From contig NZ_FOSS01000001.1 in assembly GCF_900114355.1 (NCBI RefSeq), positions 1,228,368 to 1,292,367 of the forward strand: a DNA stretch of 64,000 nucleotides, read 5' to 3'. The position numbers and the translations under genes are program-made. The notes below the pieces were generated by a model. That model saw only the letters and a program-made list of their open reading frames with translations. It was not told the DNA's origin and did no database searches. Each line of letters begins with the position of its first letter. The stretch's first letter is position 1. The stretch is from Lysobacter sp. cf310. Lineage in GTDB: Bacteria; Pseudomonadota; Gammaproteobacteria; Xanthomonadales; Xanthomonadaceae. This document shows, piece by piece, positions 39,303 to 46,863 of this stretch.

Positions 39303-40583
39303 TCAGTCAGCGGGCGCCAGCGGCCCGGCGATACAGGCGCGCCAGGCCTCGGGTTGCAGACAGTCGGCGATCACGCGATTGACTTGGGCCAGGTCCAGTG
39401 CCGACAGCCGGCGCTCGTAGCCCTGCAGGTCGTCGGGCTGCAGCCCCAGTTCGGCTTCCGACAGGATCGCCGCGCTCAGTCCGTCCAGCGTGGCCAGACC
39501 GATCTGGTAGGCGCCGATCGCGGCGCGGCGCGCGTTCTCGAACTCCAAGGCCTGCACGCCCTCGTCCGCCAGCTCGGCGACGACCGCTCGCGTGGCCGCC
39601 AAGGCGGCCTGCAATTTGTCCGGACTGGCCGACAAGGCGATCTGCCAATGGCCGCCGGCCCGCGGGGCTTCGACCAGGGCCGAGCGGATCACGTAGCTCA
39701 GCCCCTGTCGCTCGCGCACGCTCGCGACCAGGCGCGAAGCGTAGGCCCCGCCGAGGATGCGGTTGGCCAGCTGCAACGCCGGGTAATCCGCATGCTCACG
39801 CGTCAGGCCCAAGCGCTGCCCCAAGGCGACACCATGGCTTTCCTGACCCGGCAAGCACAGGCGCAGTTCGCCCGCCGCCGCGGCCGTGTCGTCGGCGCCC
39901 GCGAATTCCGGCAGCGCGCGCGGCGCCCAGCCCGCCAGTTCGCGTTCGACGAGGCGCGCCGCGTCCTGGGGATCGTAGTCGCCGACCACCGCGATGCGCA
40001 GATCGTTGGCGCCGTAGCGCTCGCGATGGAAACGGCGCACGTCGTCCAGGCTGCAGCTTTCCAGCAGCGCCGCCTGCGCGTCGGGATCGGCCTCGCAAGC
40101 CGGATGCGTCGGCGGATACAGCAGGCGCGTCAGTCCGCCGACGGCGGCGTGGGCGGGATCGAGGGCGCGGTAGTGCAACTCGGCGATCAGGCGCGCGCGT
40201 TCGGCATCGAGCAGGGCCTGGTCGAAGGCGGGCTCGCGCAGGCAGGCCATCGTCCACTCCGCGACCGCGGCCAGATCGGCCGCGCAGGCGCGCACGCCGA
40301 AACGCAGGCCGTCGGCGTCGGCCTCGACGGTGAAGGAGGCGCCGCGGCTTTCGAACAGCTCCGCGATCTCGTACTCGCCGTGGCGTCGGCTAGCGCAACC
40401 CACCAATGCCGCGACCAGATGCTGGAGCACGGCGTCGCCGGGCGTACGCGGCGCGCCGGTGCGGAAACGACCGTTAAGCGCAACGATGGCCGGCGTGCCG
40501 ACCTGCAAGCCATAGCAGTGTCCGTGCGCAAGCGCGACCGCGGCGACGCGGCGCGGATGCTCGGCGCGCAAGCGCGCGTTCAT
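39303..40583 (-). CDS. M16-family peptidase-like protein, inactive-type partner
   Basis: A 426-residue M16B-fold protein that lacks the HxxEH zinc motif. The equivalent region near the N-terminus reads LVGCASRRHGEYEIAELFESRG. Remaining M16 features are present, such as YGANDLRIAVVGDYDP and the C-terminal LGGAYASRLVASVRERQGLSYVI loop, which positions substrate in active heterodimers. It overlaps the catalytic M16 gene as ATGA, so the two subunits are made together. Last gene of the peptide operon; likely role is the non-catalytic half of the leader protease. Confidence 0.88.
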   Translation of the reverse strand: MNARLRAEHPRRVAAVALAHGHCYGLQVGTPAIVALNGRFRTGAPRTPGDAVLQHLVAALVGCASRRHGEYEIAELFESRGASFTVEADADGLRFGVRACAADLAAVAEWTMACLREPAFDQALLDAERARLIAELHYRALDPAHAAVGGLTRLLYPPTHPACEADPDAQAALLESCSLDDVRRFHRERYGANDLRIAVVGDYDPQDAARLVERELAGWAPRALPEFAGADDTAAAAGELRLCLPGQESHGVALGQRLGLTREHADYPALQLANRILGGAYASRLVASVRERQGLSYVIRSALVEAPRAGGHWQIALSASPDKLQAALAATRAVVAELADEGVQALEFENARRAAIGAYQIGLATLDGLSAAILSEAELGLQPDDLQGYERRLSALDLAQVNRVIADCLQPEAWRACIAGPLAPAD

Positions 40584-41905
40584 GCCTGCGCCTCCGCGGC
40601 CGCGTCCACCAGGTAACCGACCGTGAGCCCGCGGTCGTGCAGATAGCGGTCCGCGACCCGCGCCACATCGGCGGCAGTGACGGCGTCGATGCGATCGGCC
40701 GCCGTCGCGTACGCCCGCCAATCGCCGCAGGCGATGGCCTCGTTCAACTGCATGGCGATGGCCAGCGCGCCGTCGCGCGAGGTCAACAGGCTGCCGCGGA
40801 TGCGCGCTTGCGCGCGCGCGACCTCGTCGCCGCTGACGCCGTCGCGGCCCAGTTCGGCGATCGCCTCGCGCAGGGCGCGTTCGACCTGCTCGTACGCGTC
40901 GTCGGACGTCACCACCGCGCCCAGTTGCAGCAGGCCGGGATGACGCAGACGCGACAGGCTGGACCACACCTCCGAAGCCGCGCCGGTCGCGACCAGGCGC
41001 CGGCGCAACCGCGACGAACGGCCGCCCGCCAGCACCAGCCCCAATACCTCCAGCGCGTCCAGGTCGGGATCCAGGCCGGCCGGCGTCCGATAGGCCAGCA
41101 TCACCACGCCCGGTGCACCCGGCGATGCGACACGCGTTCTGCGTTCGCCGTCCTGCTCCGGTTCGGCCCGCTCGACCAGCATCGGTCGCGGACGCGACGG
41201 CACGCCGCCGAAATGGCGCGCGACGATCTCCAGGGCTGGGTCGCGTTCGACGTCGCCGATGACGGTGACCGTGGCGTTGTCGGGCCGGTAGTGCGCCCGA
41301 TAGTGCGCGAGCAGACGCTCGCGATCGAAGCCGGCGATGTCCTCGCGCACGCCCATCACCGACACGCCATAGGCATGGCGGGGGAATGCGCTGCGCCAGA
41401 CCGCCAGTTGCAGCTGTTCGACGGGATCGCCGATCAGCCGGTCGAACTCGTTGAGCACCACCGACTTCTCGGTGGCGATCTGGGCCGGATCCAGGCTCAG
41501 GTGACTCATGCGGTCGGCTTCGATTTGCGCGACCAGGTCCAGGCGATCGCGCGGCACCAGGTTGAAGTAATGGGTGCGGTCGTACCAGGTAGTGGCGTTT
41601 ACCTGAGCGCCCAGCGGCAGCAGCAGATCGTGGATGCCGTTGCCGCGTTGTTTGTCGAATCCGGCGCTGCCCTTGAACATCATGTGCTCAAGCATGTGGC
41701 TCACGCCGCGCGCGCCCTCGCCCTCGTGGCGGCTGCCGACCTCGTAGGTCACCATCAGCAGCGCCACCGGCGCGCTGCGCATCGGCAGATACAGCATGCG
41801 CAGACCGTTCGCGGCCAGACGGTACGCCTGCAGGCCCGCGCACTCGCCCTCGAATCGCACCGCGTCCGTAGCCTGCGCCCGTCGCTGCCCATCCATCGCG
41901 TTCAT
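40580..41905 (-). CDS. M16-family zinc peptidase, catalytic subunit
   Basis: A 441-residue M16B peptidase. The inverted zinc motif HMLEH (His70, Glu73, His74) and the distal glutamate in TEKSVVLNEF (146 or 153) are intact. LGAQVNATTWYDRTHYFNLVP and HYRPDNATVTVIGDV are typical of the PqqL/mitochondrial processing peptidase type. There is no signal peptide, so it acts in the cytoplasm. It lies 17 bp after the MATE gene and is coupled to the inactive-type partner. In RiPP operons such pairs remove leader peptides; that is the inferred role here. Confidence 0.92.
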   Translation of the reverse strand: MNAMDGQRRAQATDAVRFEGECAGLQAYRLAANGLRMLYLPMRSAPVALLMVTYEVGSRHEGEGARGVSHMLEHMMFKGSAGFDKQRGNGIHDLLLPLGAQVNATTWYDRTHYFNLVPRDRLDLVAQIEADRMSHLSLDPAQIATEKSVVLNEFDRLIGDPVEQLQLAVWRSAFPRHAYGVSVMGVREDIAGFDRERLLAHYRAHYRPDNATVTVIGDVERDPALEIVARHFGGVPSRPRPMLVERAEPEQDGERRTRVASPGAPGVVMLAYRTPAGLDPDLDALEVLGLVLAGGRSSRLRRRLVATGAASEVWSSLSRLRHPGLLQLGAVVTSDDAYEQVERALREAIAELGRDGVSGDEVARAQARIRGSLLTSRDGALAIAMQLNEAIACGDWRAYATAADRIDAVTAADVARVADRYLHDRGLTVGYLVDAAAEAQA

Positions 41906-41922
41906 GCGCGCATGTCCTGTCG

Positions 41923-43299
41923 TCACTGGGTGGCCGGGAGACTGTCGGCGGGCGCGCCCGCCGTCGACTCCGCCGGTCGGCCGAATTCGCGACGCAGGAA
42001 CCACCATGCCATCAGCGCCTGGGTCGAACCGGCGGCGACCATCGACCACCAGATCCAGACCGGACGGAAACCCGCCAGCGTGGACAGGCTGCCCGCCAGG
42101 CTCACCAGCAGCACCATGTGCAGCAACTGCGCGGCCAATCCTGCGCGCGTGTTGCCCATGCCGGTCAGCACCGCGAACGCGGTATTGGCCAGGCACAGCG
42201 GGATGAAATCCAGGGCGGTGATGCGCATGAACGACGCGCTGGCCGCGATCACGGCGGGATCGTCGGAGAAGCGGCTGCCGATCCAGGGCGCCAAGCCTTG
42301 GAACACCAGCAGCAGCACCGGCACCAGTACGCAGGCGAACAGCAGACCCGTGCGCAGGGTCTCGGTCACCCGCTCGCGCAGACCGGCGCCGTAGTTCTGG
42401 CCGACCACGATGCAGATCGCACCGCCCAGCGCGGTCAGCGGCATCAGACCCGCCTGGAACGCGCGCTGGCCGACGCCGAAGCCGGCCTGTTCGATCGGAC
42501 CGAAGGGGCGCAGCATCAAGCCGATCGCCAGCAGCGACACGGCGACCACGCCGCTGCCGATACCCGCGGGCACGCCGATCTTGATGGCGGCCCACAGCTC
42601 CTGCGGCCAGGCGAACCAGACCCGCGGCTGCATGCGCAGGTAGGCGTCCTTGCGCGCGAGGTAACTGAGCAAACCCAGCATCACCAGCGCACAGGCCAAT
42701 AGCGAACCGGCGCCGTTGCCGTCCACACCCATCGCCGGCAGGCCCAGCCAGCCGAACATCAGCAGGGGCGTCAGCACCGCGCCCAGCGCCACGGTGCCGA
42801 TCTGTGCGATCGCGCCGGCCTTGACGTTGCCGGTGAACTCCAGCATCGCGGCCAGCACCAGCATCGGAATCTGGACCGCGATCGAGGGAATGAACCAACC
42901 GTAGTACGAGGCGATGGTCGCGGCGGTGTCGGCGTCGGTGGTCATCAAGCGGCTGAGCAGGTCGCGATTGCTCCAGGTCAGCAGCGCGACCAGCGCCGAT
43001 ACCAGCAGGGAGGCGCCGAAGGCTTCGTTGAAGATCCGGTTCACGCGCGCGTGGTCCTTGGCGCCCACCGCGTGCGACAGCAGCACGCCGGCGCCCATGC
43101 TGAGCACGGGCAGCAGCGTCAGCGCCAGCATCATCGGCATGGCCGCCAGGGTCACGGCCGCCTGCGCGGTCGTGCCCAGGCGCCCCAGCCAGTAGATGTT
43201 GACCAGGGAGAATATCGTCGTGGCCAGGGCGTTCAGTAGCAGCACGCCGCACATCCGCAGCAGATGGCGGGCGATCGGGCCCTCGGTCAGATCCTGCAT
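41923..43299 (-). CDS. MATE-family efflux transporter
   Basis: A 458-residue protein with 12 predicted membrane helices in two MATE halves (GPIARHLLRMCGVLLLNALATTIFSLVNIYWLG, and the second half from about residue 235, IGVPAGIGSGV). MATE pumps use Na+ or H+ gradients to export organic cations and natural products. GGAGGAGC precedes the ATG. It sits 25 bp after the second P450 gene and 17 bp before the M16 gene. The neighbours suggest export of, or self-protection from, the modified peptide. Confidence 0.93.
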   Translation of the reverse strand: MQDLTEGPIARHLLRMCGVLLLNALATTIFSLVNIYWLGRLGTTAQAAVTLAAMPMMLALTLLPVLSMGAGVLLSHAVGAKDHARVNRIFNEAFGASLLVSALVALLTWSNRDLLSRLMTTDADTAATIASYYGWFIPSIAVQIPMLVLAAMLEFTGNVKAGAIAQIGTVALGAVLTPLLMFGWLGLPAMGVDGNGAGSLLACALVMLGLLSYLARKDAYLRMQPRVWFAWPQELWAAIKIGVPAGIGSGVVAVSLLAIGLMLRPFGPIEQAGFGVGQRAFQAGLMPLTALGGAICIVVGQNYGAGLRERVTETLRTGLLFACVLVPVLLLVFQGLAPWIGSRFSDDPAVIAASASFMRITALDFIPLCLANTAFAVLTGMGNTRAGLAAQLLHMVLLVSLAGSLSTLAGFRPVWIWWSMVAAGSTQALMAWWFLRREFGRPAESTAGAPADSLPATQ

Positions 43300-43324
43300 G
43301 ACGCTCCTCCGGCGTTCGCGGCTT

Positions 43325-44557
43325 TCATGGGCGGACCACCGTGCCGGTGAAATCCATGGGACGGATCACCGAGGCGATCGCCATCTTGGCGCGCTCCGGG
43401 TTCGATATCTGCAGCCGGTACCGCGTGCTCAGCAGATGCGCCAGCAGAACCAACTGGCCCAGGCCGAGGTTGGCGCCGATGCAGGACTTGGGCGCCCAGC
43501 CGAAGGGCACGTAGCTGCCGTGCGGGCACTGCTCGCGGCTCTCGGCCAACCAGCGGTCGGGATTGAAGACGTCCGCATCCGACCATTGGCGCTTGTCGTG
43601 GTGAATGAAGAACGAGCTCAGCACATAGCCCTGGCCGGCCTTGAGCTCGGTATCGCCGTAACGGATATCGGTACGCACGCCGCGCGTGACCACGGGCGGA
43701 GAACTCCAGATCCGCAGCACTTCCTTGACGAAGCGGGTGGTCGCCGGCGCCAGCCGCGCGGGCGACTCGCACAACGCGTCCAAGGACAGGGCCGACAATT
43801 CGGCGATCATGCGTTCGCGCCATACGTCCTGGCGATGCCACTCGTACAGCAGGCAGGCGGCCGAGGCGCCCGGCGAGCTGGTGATCGCGGTCAACAGTGC
43901 GGTGATCGCATCGGCCGCGCGATCCACACCCAGCGCCGGCAGCATGTCCACCATGGGATCGGTCAGGTCCGTTTGGCGCGGACGCTGGCCGCTGACGCGC
44001 CCCTTCAGTTCGCGCCGGACTTCCACGCCGACCAGAAACTGATAGACCCACATCTTCGAACGGTGCAGCGGCGGGCAGCGGTGCTCGTCGATATCCGACA
44101 GCACCAGCGCCACCTTCGACATCACTTCCCGTACCACGCGCCGGTGCGCGCGCGGCGACAGGCCGGAGATGATCACCGGCACCAGGGGTTCCAACATCGC
44201 GCGTTCGGCCAGCCAGACCAGGTCCTGATCCTTGCCGCTTTCGGCGTCCAGCAGCGCCTGCATGCGCAGGGCCAGGCGCTTGAAGCCCTCGGCGCTGGTG
44301 AGCGCGCGCATCTGTCCCAGCCAGCCGGAGCGCACCTGATGCCAGGACACGGGCTCGCTGTTGCGGCCGCGCACCACGTCGGAGAAGCCGTCCAGCATGG
44401 TCAGGTCGGCGTAGTTCGCCGCCTCGATGCGTTGCGCGGTTTCGGCATCGGCGATCGCGAGCGCCTCGTCCTTGAACCAGAACACCGAGCCTTCCTCCTC
44501 GATACGCCGGCGCAGCACCTGCACCGCCGGTATCTCGAATATCTTCGAATCCTGCAT
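43325..44557 (-). CDS. Divergent cytochrome P450 of the peptide operon (second P450)
   Basis: A 410-residue P450. ATG 44557 has AGGGA about 9 nt upstream; a GTG directly after the last precursor gene is a less likely start. The K-helix motif is EVLR (Glu279-Arg282), followed by FNPDRW. The heme loop is FGWAPKSCIG with Cys359; Gly and His/Arg of the usual FGxGxHxCxG are replaced by Ala and Lys. In the I-helix the segment AITSSPGAS stands where A-G-x-(D/E)-T is normal, so the acid-alcohol pair for oxygen activation is missing by eye. This suggests an unusual oxidation such as aromatic crosslinking rather than hydroxylation. Directly downstream of the three precursor genes. Confidence 0.88.
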   Translation of the reverse strand: MQDSKIFEIPAVQVLRRRIEEEGSVFWFKDEALAIADAETAQRIEAANYADLTMLDGFSDVVRGRNSEPVSWHQVRSGWLGQMRALTSAEGFKRLALRMQALLDAESGKDQDLVWLAERAMLEPLVPVIISGLSPRAHRRVVREVMSKVALVLSDIDEHRCPPLHRSKMWVYQFLVGVEVRRELKGRVSGQRPRQTDLTDPMVDMLPALGVDRAADAITALLTAITSSPGASAACLLYEWHRQDVWRERMIAELSALSLDALCESPARLAPATTRFVKEVLRIWSSPPVVTRGVRTDIRYGDTELKAGQGYVLSSFFIHHDKRQWSDADVFNPDRWLAESREQCPHGSYVPFGWAPKSCIGANLGLGQLVLLAHLLSTRYRLQISNPERAKMAIASVIRPMDFTGTVVRP

Positions 44558-44598
44558 CGTCCGTGTCCCTGCAATGAGCGAGCCGCGCCGATCGATGC

Positions 44599-44622
44599 CG
44601 GAGGGCGGCAAGCCGCCCTCCG
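44599..44622. promoter_or_regulatory. Hairpin after precursor gene A
   Basis: CGGAGGGCGGC-AA-GCCGCCCTCCG, a perfect 11-bp stem 10 bp after the stop codon of precursor A and 41 bp before the second P450 start. Corresponding stems follow precursors B and C. A partial terminator or mRNA stabiliser is likely. Confidence 0.75.
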
Positions 44623-44632
44623 ACGCCACCAC

Positions 44633-44734
44633 TCAGATGTTGTGGTACATGACCCAACGCCAGTTGGTGATGCCGCAGTGTCCTGCGCCGCGCAGACCGA
44701 AAGCGGCACGCATCGCGCAAATGACCTTCTTCAT
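44633..44734 (-). CDS. RiPP precursor peptide A
   Basis: A 33-residue peptide, one of three tandem copies. AAAGGAG lies 7 nt before the ATG. The leader MKKVICAMRAAFGLRG is nearly identical in all three. A short variable hinge (AGHCGITN) follows, then the C-terminal WRWVMYHNI. Unlike B and C, the two residues before WRW are TN rather than GG, and the hinge has a Cys. The core has two Trp, one Tyr and one His within eight residues, all plausible sites for P450-made biaryl or C-N bonds. Inferred product: a crosslinked 9-mer or slightly longer peptide. Confidence 0.85.
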   Translation of the reverse strand: MKKVICAMRAAFGLRGAGHCGITNWRWVMYHNI

Positions 44735-44944
44735 ATCTATCTCCTTTGGATATGGGTGGTGGACTGCGTTTACGCCGCGACGCGCAAGCGATATTCGGCC
44801 TTCGGGTTGCGGAGTTCTTGCTGCGGCGCCCGTGTCCTGGTTGCCGCGGAATGGGGTCGGTTTCGGGCGATGTCCGCCAGACTCGCGGCGCGAACCGGAG
44901 TTCACGCGGCCGCCGAATCGATTGCGATGGACATCGCGCCGAGT

Positions 44945-44971
44945 ACCGGAGGCGGCGGCGCCGCCTCCGGT
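44945..44971. promoter_or_regulatory. Hairpin after precursor gene B
   Basis: ACCGGAGGCGGC-GGC-GCCGCCTCCGGT, a perfect 12-bp stem 8 bp after the stop codon of precursor B. It is related in sequence to the stems after A and C. Confidence 0.75.
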
Positions 44972-44979
44972 GGGACGGC

Positions 44980-45087
44980 TCAGATGTTGTGGTAATGCAC
45001 CCAGCGCCAGCCGCCGATGCCGATGCTGGCACCCGAAGCACCGCGCACGCCGAAGGCGGCCCGCATCGCGCAAATGACCTTCTTCAT
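44980..45087 (-). CDS. RiPP precursor peptide B
   Basis: A 35-residue peptide. AAGGAG lies before the ATG. The leader MKKVICAMRAAFGVRG is followed by the hinge ASGASIGIGG and the C-terminal WRWVHYHNI. GG directly before WRW is a natural processing point, so the core may be the last nine residues. This copy has two His around the Tyr, unlike A (Met) and C (Thr) at the position before Tyr. The gene and its ~245-bp spacer form a unit of about 355 bp that is tandemly duplicated. Confidence 0.87.
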   Translation of the reverse strand: MKKVICAMRAAFGVRGASGASIGIGGWRWVHYHNI

Positions 45088-45301
45088 ATCGAACTTCTCC
45101 TTGTGGATATGTGGGTAGTGACCGCGTTTACGCCACGACATCGGAGCCGGCACCGGCCTTCGGGCCGTGGAGTCCTTGCTGCGGCCGCCGTCAGGCTGCC
45201 GCGAAATTCTGGTTGGATCGCGAGCCCGCCGTTCGCGTACGCGCGTGACCGGCGATGCGCATGGAGCCGCAAGCCGCAATGACGACCGGCCCCGCTCTTA
45301 A

Positions 45302-45328
45302 GCCGGAGGCGGCAGCGCCGCCCCCGGC
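45302..45328. promoter_or_regulatory. Hairpin after precursor gene C
   Basis: GCCGGAGGCGGC-AGC-GCCGCCCCCGGC, a 12-bp stem in which one A/C mismatch on the plus strand becomes a G-U wobble in the minus-strand RNA. It starts 8 bp after the stop codon of precursor C. The compensated pairing supports RNA function. Confidence 0.72.
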
Positions 45329-45336
45329 ACCACCAC

Positions 45337-45444
45337 TTAGATGTTGTGGTAGGTCAACCAACGCCAGCCGCCGATGCCGGCGCTGGGGCCGGAGGTACCG
45401 CGCACGCCGAAAGCGGCACGCATCGCGCAAATAACCTTACTCAT
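45337..45444 (-). CDS. RiPP precursor peptide C
   Basis: A 35-residue peptide ending in TAA, too short for standard gene calling. TGGAG lies about 9 nt before the ATG. The leader MSKVICAMRAAFGVRG differs from A and B only at residue 2 and at the shared variable position 14. The hinge TSGPSAGIGG ends in GG, and the C-terminus is WRWLTYHNI. Variation is confined to the V/L and the residue before Tyr, while W, R, W, Y, H, N and I are fixed in all three. This is the pattern expected when modifying enzymes read the fixed residues. First precursor after the leading P450. Confidence 0.87.
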   Translation of the reverse strand: MSKVICAMRAAFGVRGTSGPSAGIGGWRWLTYHNI

Positions 45445-45538
45445 ATCGAATCACTCCATGTGGATATGTGGGTTTTGACCGCGTTTACGCCACGACGCGC
45501 GTAGCCATTCCTGCTGAGCGTGCCGTGGAGTTCTTGCT

Positions 45539-45563
45539 GCGGCGATCGCAGGGCGATCGCCGC
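45539..45563. promoter_or_regulatory. Hairpin between first P450 and precursor C
   Basis: GCGGCGATCGC-AGG-GCGATCGCCGC, a perfect 11-bp stem in the 144-bp gap. A shortened GCGGC...GCCGC version occurs in the two other precursor spacers after the conserved ttcttgctgc. It could shape differential expression of the small genes. Confidence 0.6.
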
Positions 45564-45588
45564 GGATTCTGGATCGTTACGGGATTCC

Positions 45589-46728
45589 TCAGCGCGATGG
45601 CCGGATGGTCAGGGTGAACGGCGGAGGCGCCATGGCCGACGCCACGACCGGGCGATCGCCGTGCGCGATCACCTCGACGTCGCCCAGCTCGAGCACGCTG
45701 CGCAGCATGTCGCCGACCAGTTGGGTAGCCAGGTCGGCGGCGACGCAACGATGCGCGCCATGGCCGAACGGAATGAACGCCGGATTGCGCCAAGCCTCGG
45801 GATCCGCCCAGCGCTCGGGGCGGAACTCGGCCGGCTCCGTCCAGTAGGCGGCATTGCGCTGGACCATGTACGGACAGACCACGACTTCGTCGGCTACGTC
45901 CAGCTTCACGCCGGACAGTTCGTGCGCCTGCGCCGGGCGCCGCCCCAACTGCCATGCGACCGGCCACAGCCGCAGCGCCTCCTGCACGATCCATTCGACC
46001 GGCGTATCGCGACGCGGATGCGTGCCCCACAGATACAGGGACCAGGCGAGCACGAAGCCCACCGACCCGGAAATGGCGAACAGGAAGGACAGGAACACCT
46101 CGACCAGTTCGTCCTGGCGGCGCTCGGGCCCGTCCGAATGGGCGACGATGTCGAGGATGTCCAGCGGCGAGACGCGCGGATGGCGCTGACAGGCGCCGAT
46201 CGCGTTCGACAAGCGCAGCGTGGTATTGAACTGCAGCCACATGCGCCGCCATCGCGGCTGACGCGCACGCGCGTTAGCCAGCACCGAGCGCTGCACGATC
46301 TGATCGAGCAGGCGGCGCAGGGACGGCGGGCGGTCGGACGCCAGCAGCGCCGGCAGCAGATAGCGGTAGCTCAACCAGTTCCCGGCATCCGGCCACTGAC
46401 TGGTGGCGCCGAGCTGGCCGCGTACGAAATCGCGCAAGGCGTCCGGCCCGCGCGCCTGCAGGAACTCCTTGAGCAGGCCGCGCGCTTCGCGGCGCATCTT
46501 CAGCTGCGCGGAGCGGGGCTCGAAGTAACCGTAGCGCGTGTGAAAGAAATCGGAATGTTCGGCATAGCTGCCGTCCGCATTGCTGAGCACGGAACGCGCA
46601 TCGGCGGCGTTGCCGAGCGAATACTCGTTGCGTCCGGTTTGGACGATATCGCCGGCATCGGCCAACTGCCGATCCAGAAATCCAAGCGGGTCCCGCTGAA
46701 AGCCGGACCAGGCTTCTTCTTTCAACAC
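45589..46728 (-). CDS. Cytochrome P450 of the peptide operon (first P450)
   Basis: A 379-residue P450, the first gene of the operon. It starts at GTG 46728 behind GGAGGG. The K-helix motif is EALR (Glu250-Arg253), then FRPERW, and the heme loop is FGHGAHRCVA with Cys328. In the I-helix AISGSVGF replaces the usual A-G-x-(D/E)-T-T, so the acidic residue is absent, as in the second P450. The protein is a little shorter than the typical ~400. It is only distantly similar to the second P450, so the two probably make different bonds. Likely substrate: the WRW(V/L)xYHNI end of the precursors. Placement with precursor genes is the main evidence for the substrate. Confidence 0.9.
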   Translation of the reverse strand: MLKEEAWSGFQRDPLGFLDRQLADAGDIVQTGRNEYSLGNAADARSVLSNADGSYAEHSDFFHTRYGYFEPRSAQLKMRREARGLLKEFLQARGPDALRDFVRGQLGATSQWPDAGNWLSYRYLLPALLASDRPPSLRRLLDQIVQRSVLANARARQPRWRRMWLQFNTTLRLSNAIGACQRHPRVSPLDILDIVAHSDGPERRQDELVEVFLSFLFAISGSVGFVLAWSLYLWGTHPRRDTPVEWIVQEALRLWPVAWQLGRRPAQAHELSGVKLDVADEVVVCPYMVQRNAAYWTEPAEFRPERWADPEAWRNPAFIPFGHGAHRCVAADLATQLVGDMLRSVLELGDVEVIAHGDRPVVASAMAPPPFTLTIRPSR

Positions 46729-46823: not shown

Positions 46824-46863
46824 ACTCGACGTCGAGTATGGTTTCGCGCCCGGGTAGCGTCAA
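46824..46863 (-). promoter_or_regulatory. Sigma70-like promoter and overlapping palindromic operator of the peptide operon
   Basis: Read on the minus strand: TTGACG (-35), a 17-nt spacer, and CATACT (-10), giving a start near 46828 and a leader of about 100 nt to the GTG at 46728. A perfect 14-bp palindrome ACTCGACGTCGAGT (46824-46837) overlaps the -10 and start site, a typical repressor position. GTCGAGTATGG occurs again at 46972-46982. No regulator gene lies in the operon. The rest of the 46729-47130 gap shows no credible gene. Confidence 0.6.

What the first reader, a model, noticed from the sequence alone, without database searches (positions are those of the whole stretch)
39303..46728. 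Candidate new RiPP class: three tandem precursors, two P450s, MATE exporter and M16 peptidase pair
Seen: a compact minus-strand operon (P450, precursors C, B, A, P450, MATE, M16, M16) with gaps of 17-150 bp outside the precursor repeats. Known: P450 enzymes crosslink aromatic residues in several RiPP families (biarylitides, cittilins, tryptorubin-type), and M16 pairs and MATE pumps process and export peptides elsewhere. Inferred: the fixed end WRW(V/L)xYHNI is crosslinked by one or both P450s, cut free by the M16 pair and exported. I know of no described family with this core, two P450s and this protease/exporter set in Xanthomonadaceae.
Basis: partly seen in the sequence, partly recalled or inferred. 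Interest (0 to 1): 0.92.

Follow-up and report, generated by a model that had tools for sequence, protein, structure and literature searches.

The report
Paired-P450 crosslinked peptide gene cluster
A Lysobacter-type genome carries a conserved set of genes that very probably makes small peptides stapled at their aromatic end by two related P450 enzymes; it is real and shared by several relatives, but a relative of one of the two enzymes already has a solved structure, so the class may not be wholly new.

Summary
The minus-strand operon (P450a, precursors A-C, P450b, MATE, M16a, M16b) lies at 39303-46728 and recurs as a unit, with 1-4 precursors, in eight other genomes of the same order. All 21 precursors in these nine genomes end in WRWxxYH(N/T)I. 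A distant gammaproteobacterium (G1126) keeps both P450s and two WxWxxYHHM precursors, with an ABC transporter and no MATE or M16 match in its locus. The P450 pair and the tail define the system, not the protease/exporter set.

New here: the P450s are paralogs in one clade, and 0 of 24 members has the usual I-helix acid-alcohol pair. Hairpins follow 19 of 21 precursors and covary in the 18 aligned. A lone-P450 branch has its own 32-34-aa precursors. The M16 genes look like an active/inactive pair.

Limits: PDB 9ulw is the G1126 P450a with one substitution, so the enzyme family is already under study; I found no paper. Cross-links, cut site and activity are inferred. Verdict: a P450-crosslinked RiPP, new variant of a known kind.

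The parts
46835..46863 (-). probable operon promoter, TTGACG-N17-CATACT
   Evidence: The consensus scan alone is at chance rate (1 found, 0.9 expected), but both hexamers are kept, 17-18 nt apart by eye, in 5 of 5 genomes that share the chromosomal slot.
45589..46728 (-). P450a (379 aa)
   Evidence: Pfam p450 E 8e-21; ExxR and haem Cys kept; PDB 9ulw E 4.4e-76.
45481..45491 (-). GGCGTAAACGC element 36 nt before precursor A
   Evidence: 3 copies in the window, 0.07 expected.
45337..45444 (-). precursor A, MSKVICAMRAAFGVRGTSGPSAGIGGWRWLTYHNI
45302..45328 (-). hairpin after precursor A
   Evidence: z -1.2 for this copy alone
45124..45134 (-). GGCGTAAACGC element 36 nt before precursor B
44980..45087 (-). 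precursor B, MKKVICAMRAAFGVRGASGASIGIGGWRWVHYHNI
44945..44971 (-). hairpin after precursor B
   Evidence: z -4.8
44766..44776 (-). GGCGTAAACGC element 31 nt before precursor C
44633..44734 (-). precursor C, MKKVICAMRAAFGLRGAGHCGITNWRWVMYHNI
44599..44622 (-). hairpin after precursor C, before P450b
   Evidence: z -2.6
43325..44557 (-). P450b (410 aa)
   Evidence: Pfam p450 E 5e-21; ExxR and haem Cys kept
41923..43299 (-). MATE efflux transporter (458 aa)
   Evidence: Pfam MatE E 2e-38
40580..41905 (-). M16a, zinc peptidase subunit with HMLEH
   Evidence: Pfam; best PDB match 3amj_C 'active subunit', 2.8e-47; HxxEH in 9 of 9 genomes
39303..40583 (-). M16b, M16 subunit without the zinc motif
   Evidence: Pfam M16_C only; best PDB matches 3gwb 1.4e-23 and 3amj_B 'inactive subunit' 3.3e-19; HxxEH in 0 of 9 genomes

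Best explanation
A RiPP gene cluster. One operon makes three 33-35-aa precursors with a near-constant leader (M-(S/K)-K-VICAMRAAFG-(V/L)-RG), a variable spacer and a constant tail WRWxxYHNI. Shown by sequence: gene identities, conserved linkage, invariant residues. Inferred: P450a and P450b, two paralogs without the usual I-helix acid-alcohol pair, couple aromatic side chains of the tail instead of hydroxylating it. The aromatic or imidazole residues invariant in all 23 precursors (21 plus two in G1126) are W1, W3, Y6 and H7. My best guess is a W3-Y6 (i,i+3) link by P450b, whose lone relatives face W-x-x-W tails, and a second link involving W1 or H7 by P450a. The M16a/M16b pair then removes the leader and the MATE pump exports the congeners, which differ at the two residues between W3 and Y6. 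A hairpin after most precursor genes probably keeps precursor mRNA in excess over enzyme mRNA. The most likely role is an exported antagonistic or signalling metabolite, antagonism slightly more likely given its patchy, losable distribution. Odds: RiPP 0.93, at least one cross-link 0.8, two cross-links 0.55, W3-Y6 among them 0.4.
For: Whole cluster conserved in nine genomes, 21 precursors with invariant WRW..YH. G1126 keeps both P450 types and the W-x-W-x-x-Y-H tail. P450a clade support 0.999, P450b plus lone relatives 1.000, all together 0.956; I-helix [D/E]T[T/S] in 0 of 24 against 16 of 21 other P450s; ExxR and haem Cys in 24 of 24. Lone relatives also stand behind short aromatic-tailed ORFs, 15 of 15 loci. 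M16 pair resembles an active/inactive dimer. Hairpins: mean z -2.96 over 21, stems of 10 or more pairs in 19 of 21, two-sided changes in 10 of 11 pairs of 18 aligned. Nearest NCBIfam model of both P450s is a RiPP P450, ApyO, though far below its cut-off.
Against: No product, mass or activity is known. 5 of 21 other P450s also lack the I-helix motif. The hairpin is weak or missing for some: z above -1.5 in 4 of 21, and absent after the first G1126 precursor. One control, the P450a end in the window, also gives z -3.9. No RiPP recognition element or redox partner was seen among the cluster genes. Best PDB matches apart from 9ulw are generic P450s.
Confidence: 0.75

Rival explanations
1. A RiPP with only one cross-link: one P450 couples two aromatic residues and the other hydroxylates or otherwise oxidises the peptide.
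For: The two P450s differ strongly (about 23% identity where tblastn aligns them) and the lone-P450 branch shows that one enzyme can serve a precursor.
Against: Both P450 types lack the I-helix acid-alcohol pair, and four coupling-prone residues are invariant.
Confidence: 0.25
2. The peptide is a signal, cofactor or metal-binding product with a fixed structure, not an antagonistic compound.
For: The tail hardly varies over a large evolutionary distance and the same congeners recur in several genomes, unlike fast-diversifying toxins.
Against: The cluster is patchy: 8 of 297 family genomes, 4 of 18 same-genus genomes of that draw, and it was deleted in G229; no regulator or receptor gene lies in the operon.
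Confidence: 0.3
3. The short ORFs are not enzyme substrates but leader peptides that control expression of P450b and the genes after it, and the hairpins are attenuators.
For: Short ORFs followed by hairpins stand before an enzyme gene.
Against: Up to four copies with mostly synonymous differences, same tail in G1126 and other aromatic tails before lone P450s, and a peptidase pair in the same operon.
Confidence: 0.04

Closest known systems
P450 of PDB entry 9ulw and its cluster in the unnamed gammaproteobacterium G1126
   Same: Full-length homolog of P450a (38.8% identity); two paralogous P450s; precursors ending in W-x-W-x-x-Y-H.
   Different: Gene order precursors-P450b-P450a-ABC transporter, no MATE or M16 match in the locus, tail ends HHM; product not found in the held literature.
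Rubrin/gpertide-type RiPPs (Tyr C6-Trp C7' link; PMC13383641, passages)
   Same: P450 field, Tyr-Trp coupling, the kind of link guessed here for W3-Y6.
   Different: No sequences or clusters compared; whether gpertide comes from a G1126-like cluster is unknown to me.
Aminopyruvatides (P450 ApyO; PMC13192836, passages)
   Same: Best NCBIfam match of both P450s; C-terminal aromatic substrate.
   Different: 75 and 59 bits against a cut-off of 525; there a YLY motif and an RRE are described, not seen here.
Biarylitides (PMC13417212, listing abstract and one passage)
   Same: P450 cross-linking of aromatic residues next to a tiny precursor.
   Different: Five-residue precursor there; 30-35 aa and two P450s here.
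M16 heteromeric leader peptidases such as PttP1/PttP2 (PMC10885120, passages)
   Same: M16 pair proposed to remove a RiPP leader.
   Different: Encoded inside the operon here; substrate and cut site untested.

Membership tests
P450-crosslinked RiPP (broad kind) | Short precursor genes conserved beside a P450 | tested here: met
   10 of 10 genomes found with both P450s
P450-crosslinked RiPP (broad kind) | P450 with haem cysteine and ExxR | tested here: met
   24 of 24 clade members
P450-crosslinked RiPP (broad kind) | Aromatic cross-link in the product | not testable with these tools
   needs MS and NMR
Biarylitides | Five-residue precursor (PMC13417212) | tested here: not met
   precursors of 30-35 aa in nine genomes
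Aminopyruvatides | P450 above the ApyO equivalog cut-off (525 bits) | tested here: not met
   75 and 59 bits
Rubrin/gpertide type (Tyr C6-Trp C7' link) | Tyr-Trp cross-link | not testable with these tools
   a W and Y pair three apart is present; the link is not known
Family of the PDB 9ulw P450 | Full-length homology of P450a | tested here: met
   E 4.4e-76 over residues 8-376; same clade, support 0.999
Family of the PDB 9ulw P450 | Second paralogous P450 and W-x-W-x-x-Y-H precursors beside it | tested here: met
   G1126 locus L070
M16B-type heterodimeric peptidase | One subunit with HxxEH, the partner without, adjacent genes | tested here: met
   9 of 9 and 0 of 9; PDB matches
Atropopeptides, cittilins, cihunamides | Their own precursor and P450 signatures | not tested
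   no sequences of these were compared; resemblance is recalled only

The most novel reading that the evidence does not exclude
A superfamily of P450 RiPPs centred on the Xanthomonadaceae, with 30-38-aa precursors, in which one ancestral peptide-coupling P450 (a type still found alone, with W-x-x-W-x-x-W tails) was duplicated into a division-of-labour pair that builds a bicyclic W-x-W-x-x-Y-H staple in two ordered steps, each producer keeping a fixed set of congeners.
Probability: 0.4. Interest if true: 0.7.

Novelty: new variant of a known kind. Interest (0 to 1): 0.57.

Why it matters
It is a compact, conserved and testable case of two paralogous P450s sharing one short peptide, with a natural single-P450 branch that may show what one of them does alone. 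The three window precursors match no Pfam or NCBIfam model, so family-based annotation can miss them. If a bicyclic staple is confirmed, it would add a scaffold from Gram-negative bacteria to P450-crosslinked RiPPs; the biarylitides, for comparison, are reported mainly from Actinomycetota (PMC13417212, passage).

Tried and rejected
G124 precursor hit: rejected as chance (in-frame stop, no other cluster gene in 12 kb). Biarylitide-like minimal ORFs near the lone P450s and in G1126: a loose pattern gave two hits without a clear ribosome site, not followed. AlphaFold2 with five-row alignments gave poor models (mean pLDDT 45.6 and 51.0); two structure searches with the P450a model listed only generic P450s and not 9ulw, which says nothing; the P450b model was not searched. 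P450b against plasmids: no match at E 1e-20 in 72,556 records. P450a in 369 genomes of the class: the window's genome and one weaker match, G451 (E 2.8e-25), whose locus showed no WxW-tailed ORF of the cluster type. P450a in 197 genomes of the order of G1126: only G1126. Phylum search: 17 of 299 at E 1e-15, of which 15 (all but the window's genome and G1126) at 1e-16 to 1e-21, read as generic P450s. Order search with P450b: 15 of 397, being 5 full clusters, 4 lone relatives and 6 matches at 1e-16 to 1e-19 read as generic. Literature: ten searches gave no paper on this cluster or on 9ulw, and none that joined P450, RiPP, precursor peptide and Lysobacter. Only open-licence papers are held, so this does not show absence from print. 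That G1126 is a Gallaecimonas, and that gpertide is named after one, are guesses of mine that no call bears out. Control z values at gene ends use ends taken partly from tblastn alignments and are approximate.
Full report
What is there. The operon is real and correctly placed. On the minus strand: P450a 46728-45589, precursors A 45444-45337, B 45087-44980 and C 44734-44633, P450b 44557-43325, MATE 43299-41923, M16a 41905-40580, M16b 40583-39303. Pfam supports each protein gene; the precursors match no Pfam or NCBIfam model at E 0.1. The precursors are MSKVICAMRAAFGVRGTSGPSAGIGGWRWLTYHNI, MKKVICAMRAAFGVRGASGASIGIGGWRWVHYHNI and MKKVICAMRAAFGLRGAGHCGITNWRWVMYHNI. A DNA pattern for the tail occurs three times in the 4.7-Mb genome, all here.

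Distribution. A precursor search of 297 genomes of the family gave nine hits, one of them chance (G124), so 8 of 297. The seven besides the window's genome carry the whole gene set in the same order. An order-wide search with P450b (397 genomes) found 15 genomes: five with the full cluster, among them G873 from another family, four with a lone relative, and six at E 1e-16 to 1e-19 that I read as generic P450s. Named members are Lysobacter sp. Root76, Luteimonas aquatica RIB1-20, a Lysobacterales MAG and Lysobacter sp. CFH 32150. Precursors per genome are 1 to 4, 21 in all. All 21 have WRW, two variable residues, YH, then N (20) or T (1), then I. The window's tails recur: WRWLTYHNI in G217 and G015; WRWVHYHNI in G217, G015 and G013; WRWVMYHNI in G015 and G008.

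A distant version. A phylum search with P450a (299 genomes) found one other strong hit, G1126 (E 1.2e-92). There, precursors ending NSWRWVMYHHM and PSWFWMLYHHM stand before a P450b-type and then a P450a-type gene, followed by a 587-aa ABC transporter in which Pfam finds no peptidase domain; the MATE and M16 proteins have no match in that 19-kb stretch. The constant part is therefore the P450 pair and the W-x-W-x-x-Y-H tail. In 197 genomes of that order only G1126 had it. Its P450a is identical to PDB chain 9ulw over 376 residues except at position 62, F in the genome and G in the PDB chain. This enzyme is thus already under structural study; I found no paper. PMC13383641 (passages; part of its reference list) mentions gpertide, a RiPP reported in 2025 with a Tyr-Trp link. 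PMC13192836 (passages; references) mentions a typertide P450 that links tetrapeptides without a leader. Whether either has to do with the G1126 cluster I could not learn.

The enzymes. The tree holds 45 P450s: 10 P450a, 10 P450b, 4 lone relatives and 21 other P450s (22 loci were tried; L066 gave no ORF that passed the filter). P450a forms a clade (support 0.999), P450b plus the lone relatives another (1.000), and both together a third (0.956); the two G1126 enzymes fall one in each. So the pair is an old duplication. All 24 keep ExxR and the haem cysteine. None has the I-helix [D/E]T[T/S] motif, which 16 of the 21 others have and 5 lack. That a missing acid-alcohol pair fits coupling rather than hydroxylation is general knowledge, not a result here. 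M16a carries HxxEH in 9 of 9 genomes, M16b in 0 of 9; a loose R...Y pattern of the partner subunit is in 7 of 9 M16b and 0 of 9 M16a. Best PDB matches are the active subunit of a zinc peptidase for M16a, and an inactive-domain protein and the inactive subunit for M16b. M16 heteromers are described as leader peptidases of class III lanthipeptides (PMC10885120, passages).

RNA features. After most precursor stop codons lies a G+C-rich hairpin without a long U-run. Over all 21 the mean z is -2.96, with 14 of 21 below -2 and 4 of 21 above -1.5. Controls average +0.17 (50 nt before the precursors), +0.51 (inside them) and -0.7, +0.5, -0.1 and -0.3 (after P450a, P450b, MATE and M16b); one control, the end of P450a in the window, reaches -3.9. 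Stems of 10 or more pairs were found in 19 of 21. In an alignment of 18 of the 21, 10 of 11 consensus pairs show changes on both sides that keep the pair. In G1126 the second precursor, just before P450b, has such a hairpin (z -3.9); the first does not (z -1.1). I infer a 3' stabiliser or partial terminator. A second element, GGCGTAAACGC, lies 36, 36 and 31 nt before precursors A, B and C: 3 copies in the window, 0.07 expected. Its longer form GGCGTAAACGCNGTC occurs only at these three places in the genome; the core GGCGTAAA is before 9 of 21 precursors in 6 of 9 genomes. The promoter at 46863-46835 is kept in 5 of 5 genomes that share the slot, although the scan alone is at chance rate.

Genomic setting. 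In the window's genome, G217, G015, G173 and G070 the cluster lies between xerC and hslV, in the first two with an M23 peptidase gene between cluster and hslV; in G013, G089, G008 and G873 no window flank gene matches the stretch read around the cluster. In 14 of 14 same-genus genomes of the draw without precursors the slot is empty: hslV within 1.5 kb of xerC in 13, the M23 gene beside xerC in G229, and no cluster gene in between. In G229 (XerC 97% identical) the gap of about 160 bp holds the last 74 bp of M16b (window 39303-39376): a deletion scar. At least part of the patchiness is loss.

A lone-P450 branch. P450b relatives of 31-34% identity in G062 and G116 (same genus) and G124 and G267 (another genus of the family) have no second P450 of this kind in the stretches read. 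Before each stands a short ORF: MARLLRAARVAMNIHPNETSSLWKTWPLWVEF (G062, G116), MKMKRFARALRVTLNIHPNEKSSVWNTWPLWVEF (G124), MTRLIRALQVSLNLRSDNSTQCIRSKYRYWNIF (G267). The G124 type is in 12 of 61 genomes of that genus, the G062 type in 3 of 20 of the window's genus. In 15 of 15 fetched loci the P450 follows. The W-x-x-W-x-x-W tails suggest that the P450b type joins residues three apart, hence my guess of W3-Y6.

Mechanism, graded. Shown by sequence: gene identities, conserved linkage, invariant residues, paralog pair, M16 pair with one zinc motif, hairpins. Probable: the P450s modify the precursors. Inferred: two cross-links and their places, leader removal by M16a/M16b, export by MATE, an antagonistic or signalling role. 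Not known: redox partner, cut site, activity.

Verdict. 'New class' goes too far: it belongs to the known kind of P450-crosslinked RiPPs, and an enzyme of its own clade is in the PDB. By the features tested it is neither a biarylitide nor an aminopyruvatide. New variant of a known kind, moderate interest.

Noticed in passing
L071:9067-10481 (+), L072:8767-10182 (-), L074:8853-10264 (+), L098-L112: Lone relatives of P450b stand behind a 32-34-aa ORF ending in ...WxTWPLWVEF or a variant: 12 of 61 genomes of one related genus and 3 of 20 of the window's genus. Probably a separate minimal P450 RiPP.
   Followed up: partly
L073:9524-10911 (-): In G267 the lone P450 stands behind an ORF with another aromatic tail...KYRYWNIF; seen in one genome only.
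   Followed up: no
L095 (G229) between xerC and the M23 gene; window 39303-39376: A close relative lost the whole cluster by a deletion that left the last 74 bp of M16b beside xerC.
   Followed up: yes
44766-44776, 45124-45134, 45481-45491: Element GGCGTAAACGC (inverted GCGT-AA-ACGC) at a nearly fixed distance before each precursor and, in its longer form, nowhere else in the genome; role unknown (operator, RNA element or second promoter part).
   Followed up: partly
L070:4910-5908: An integrase-core (rve) gene lies near the G1126 cluster, a hint of mobility there.
   Followed up: no
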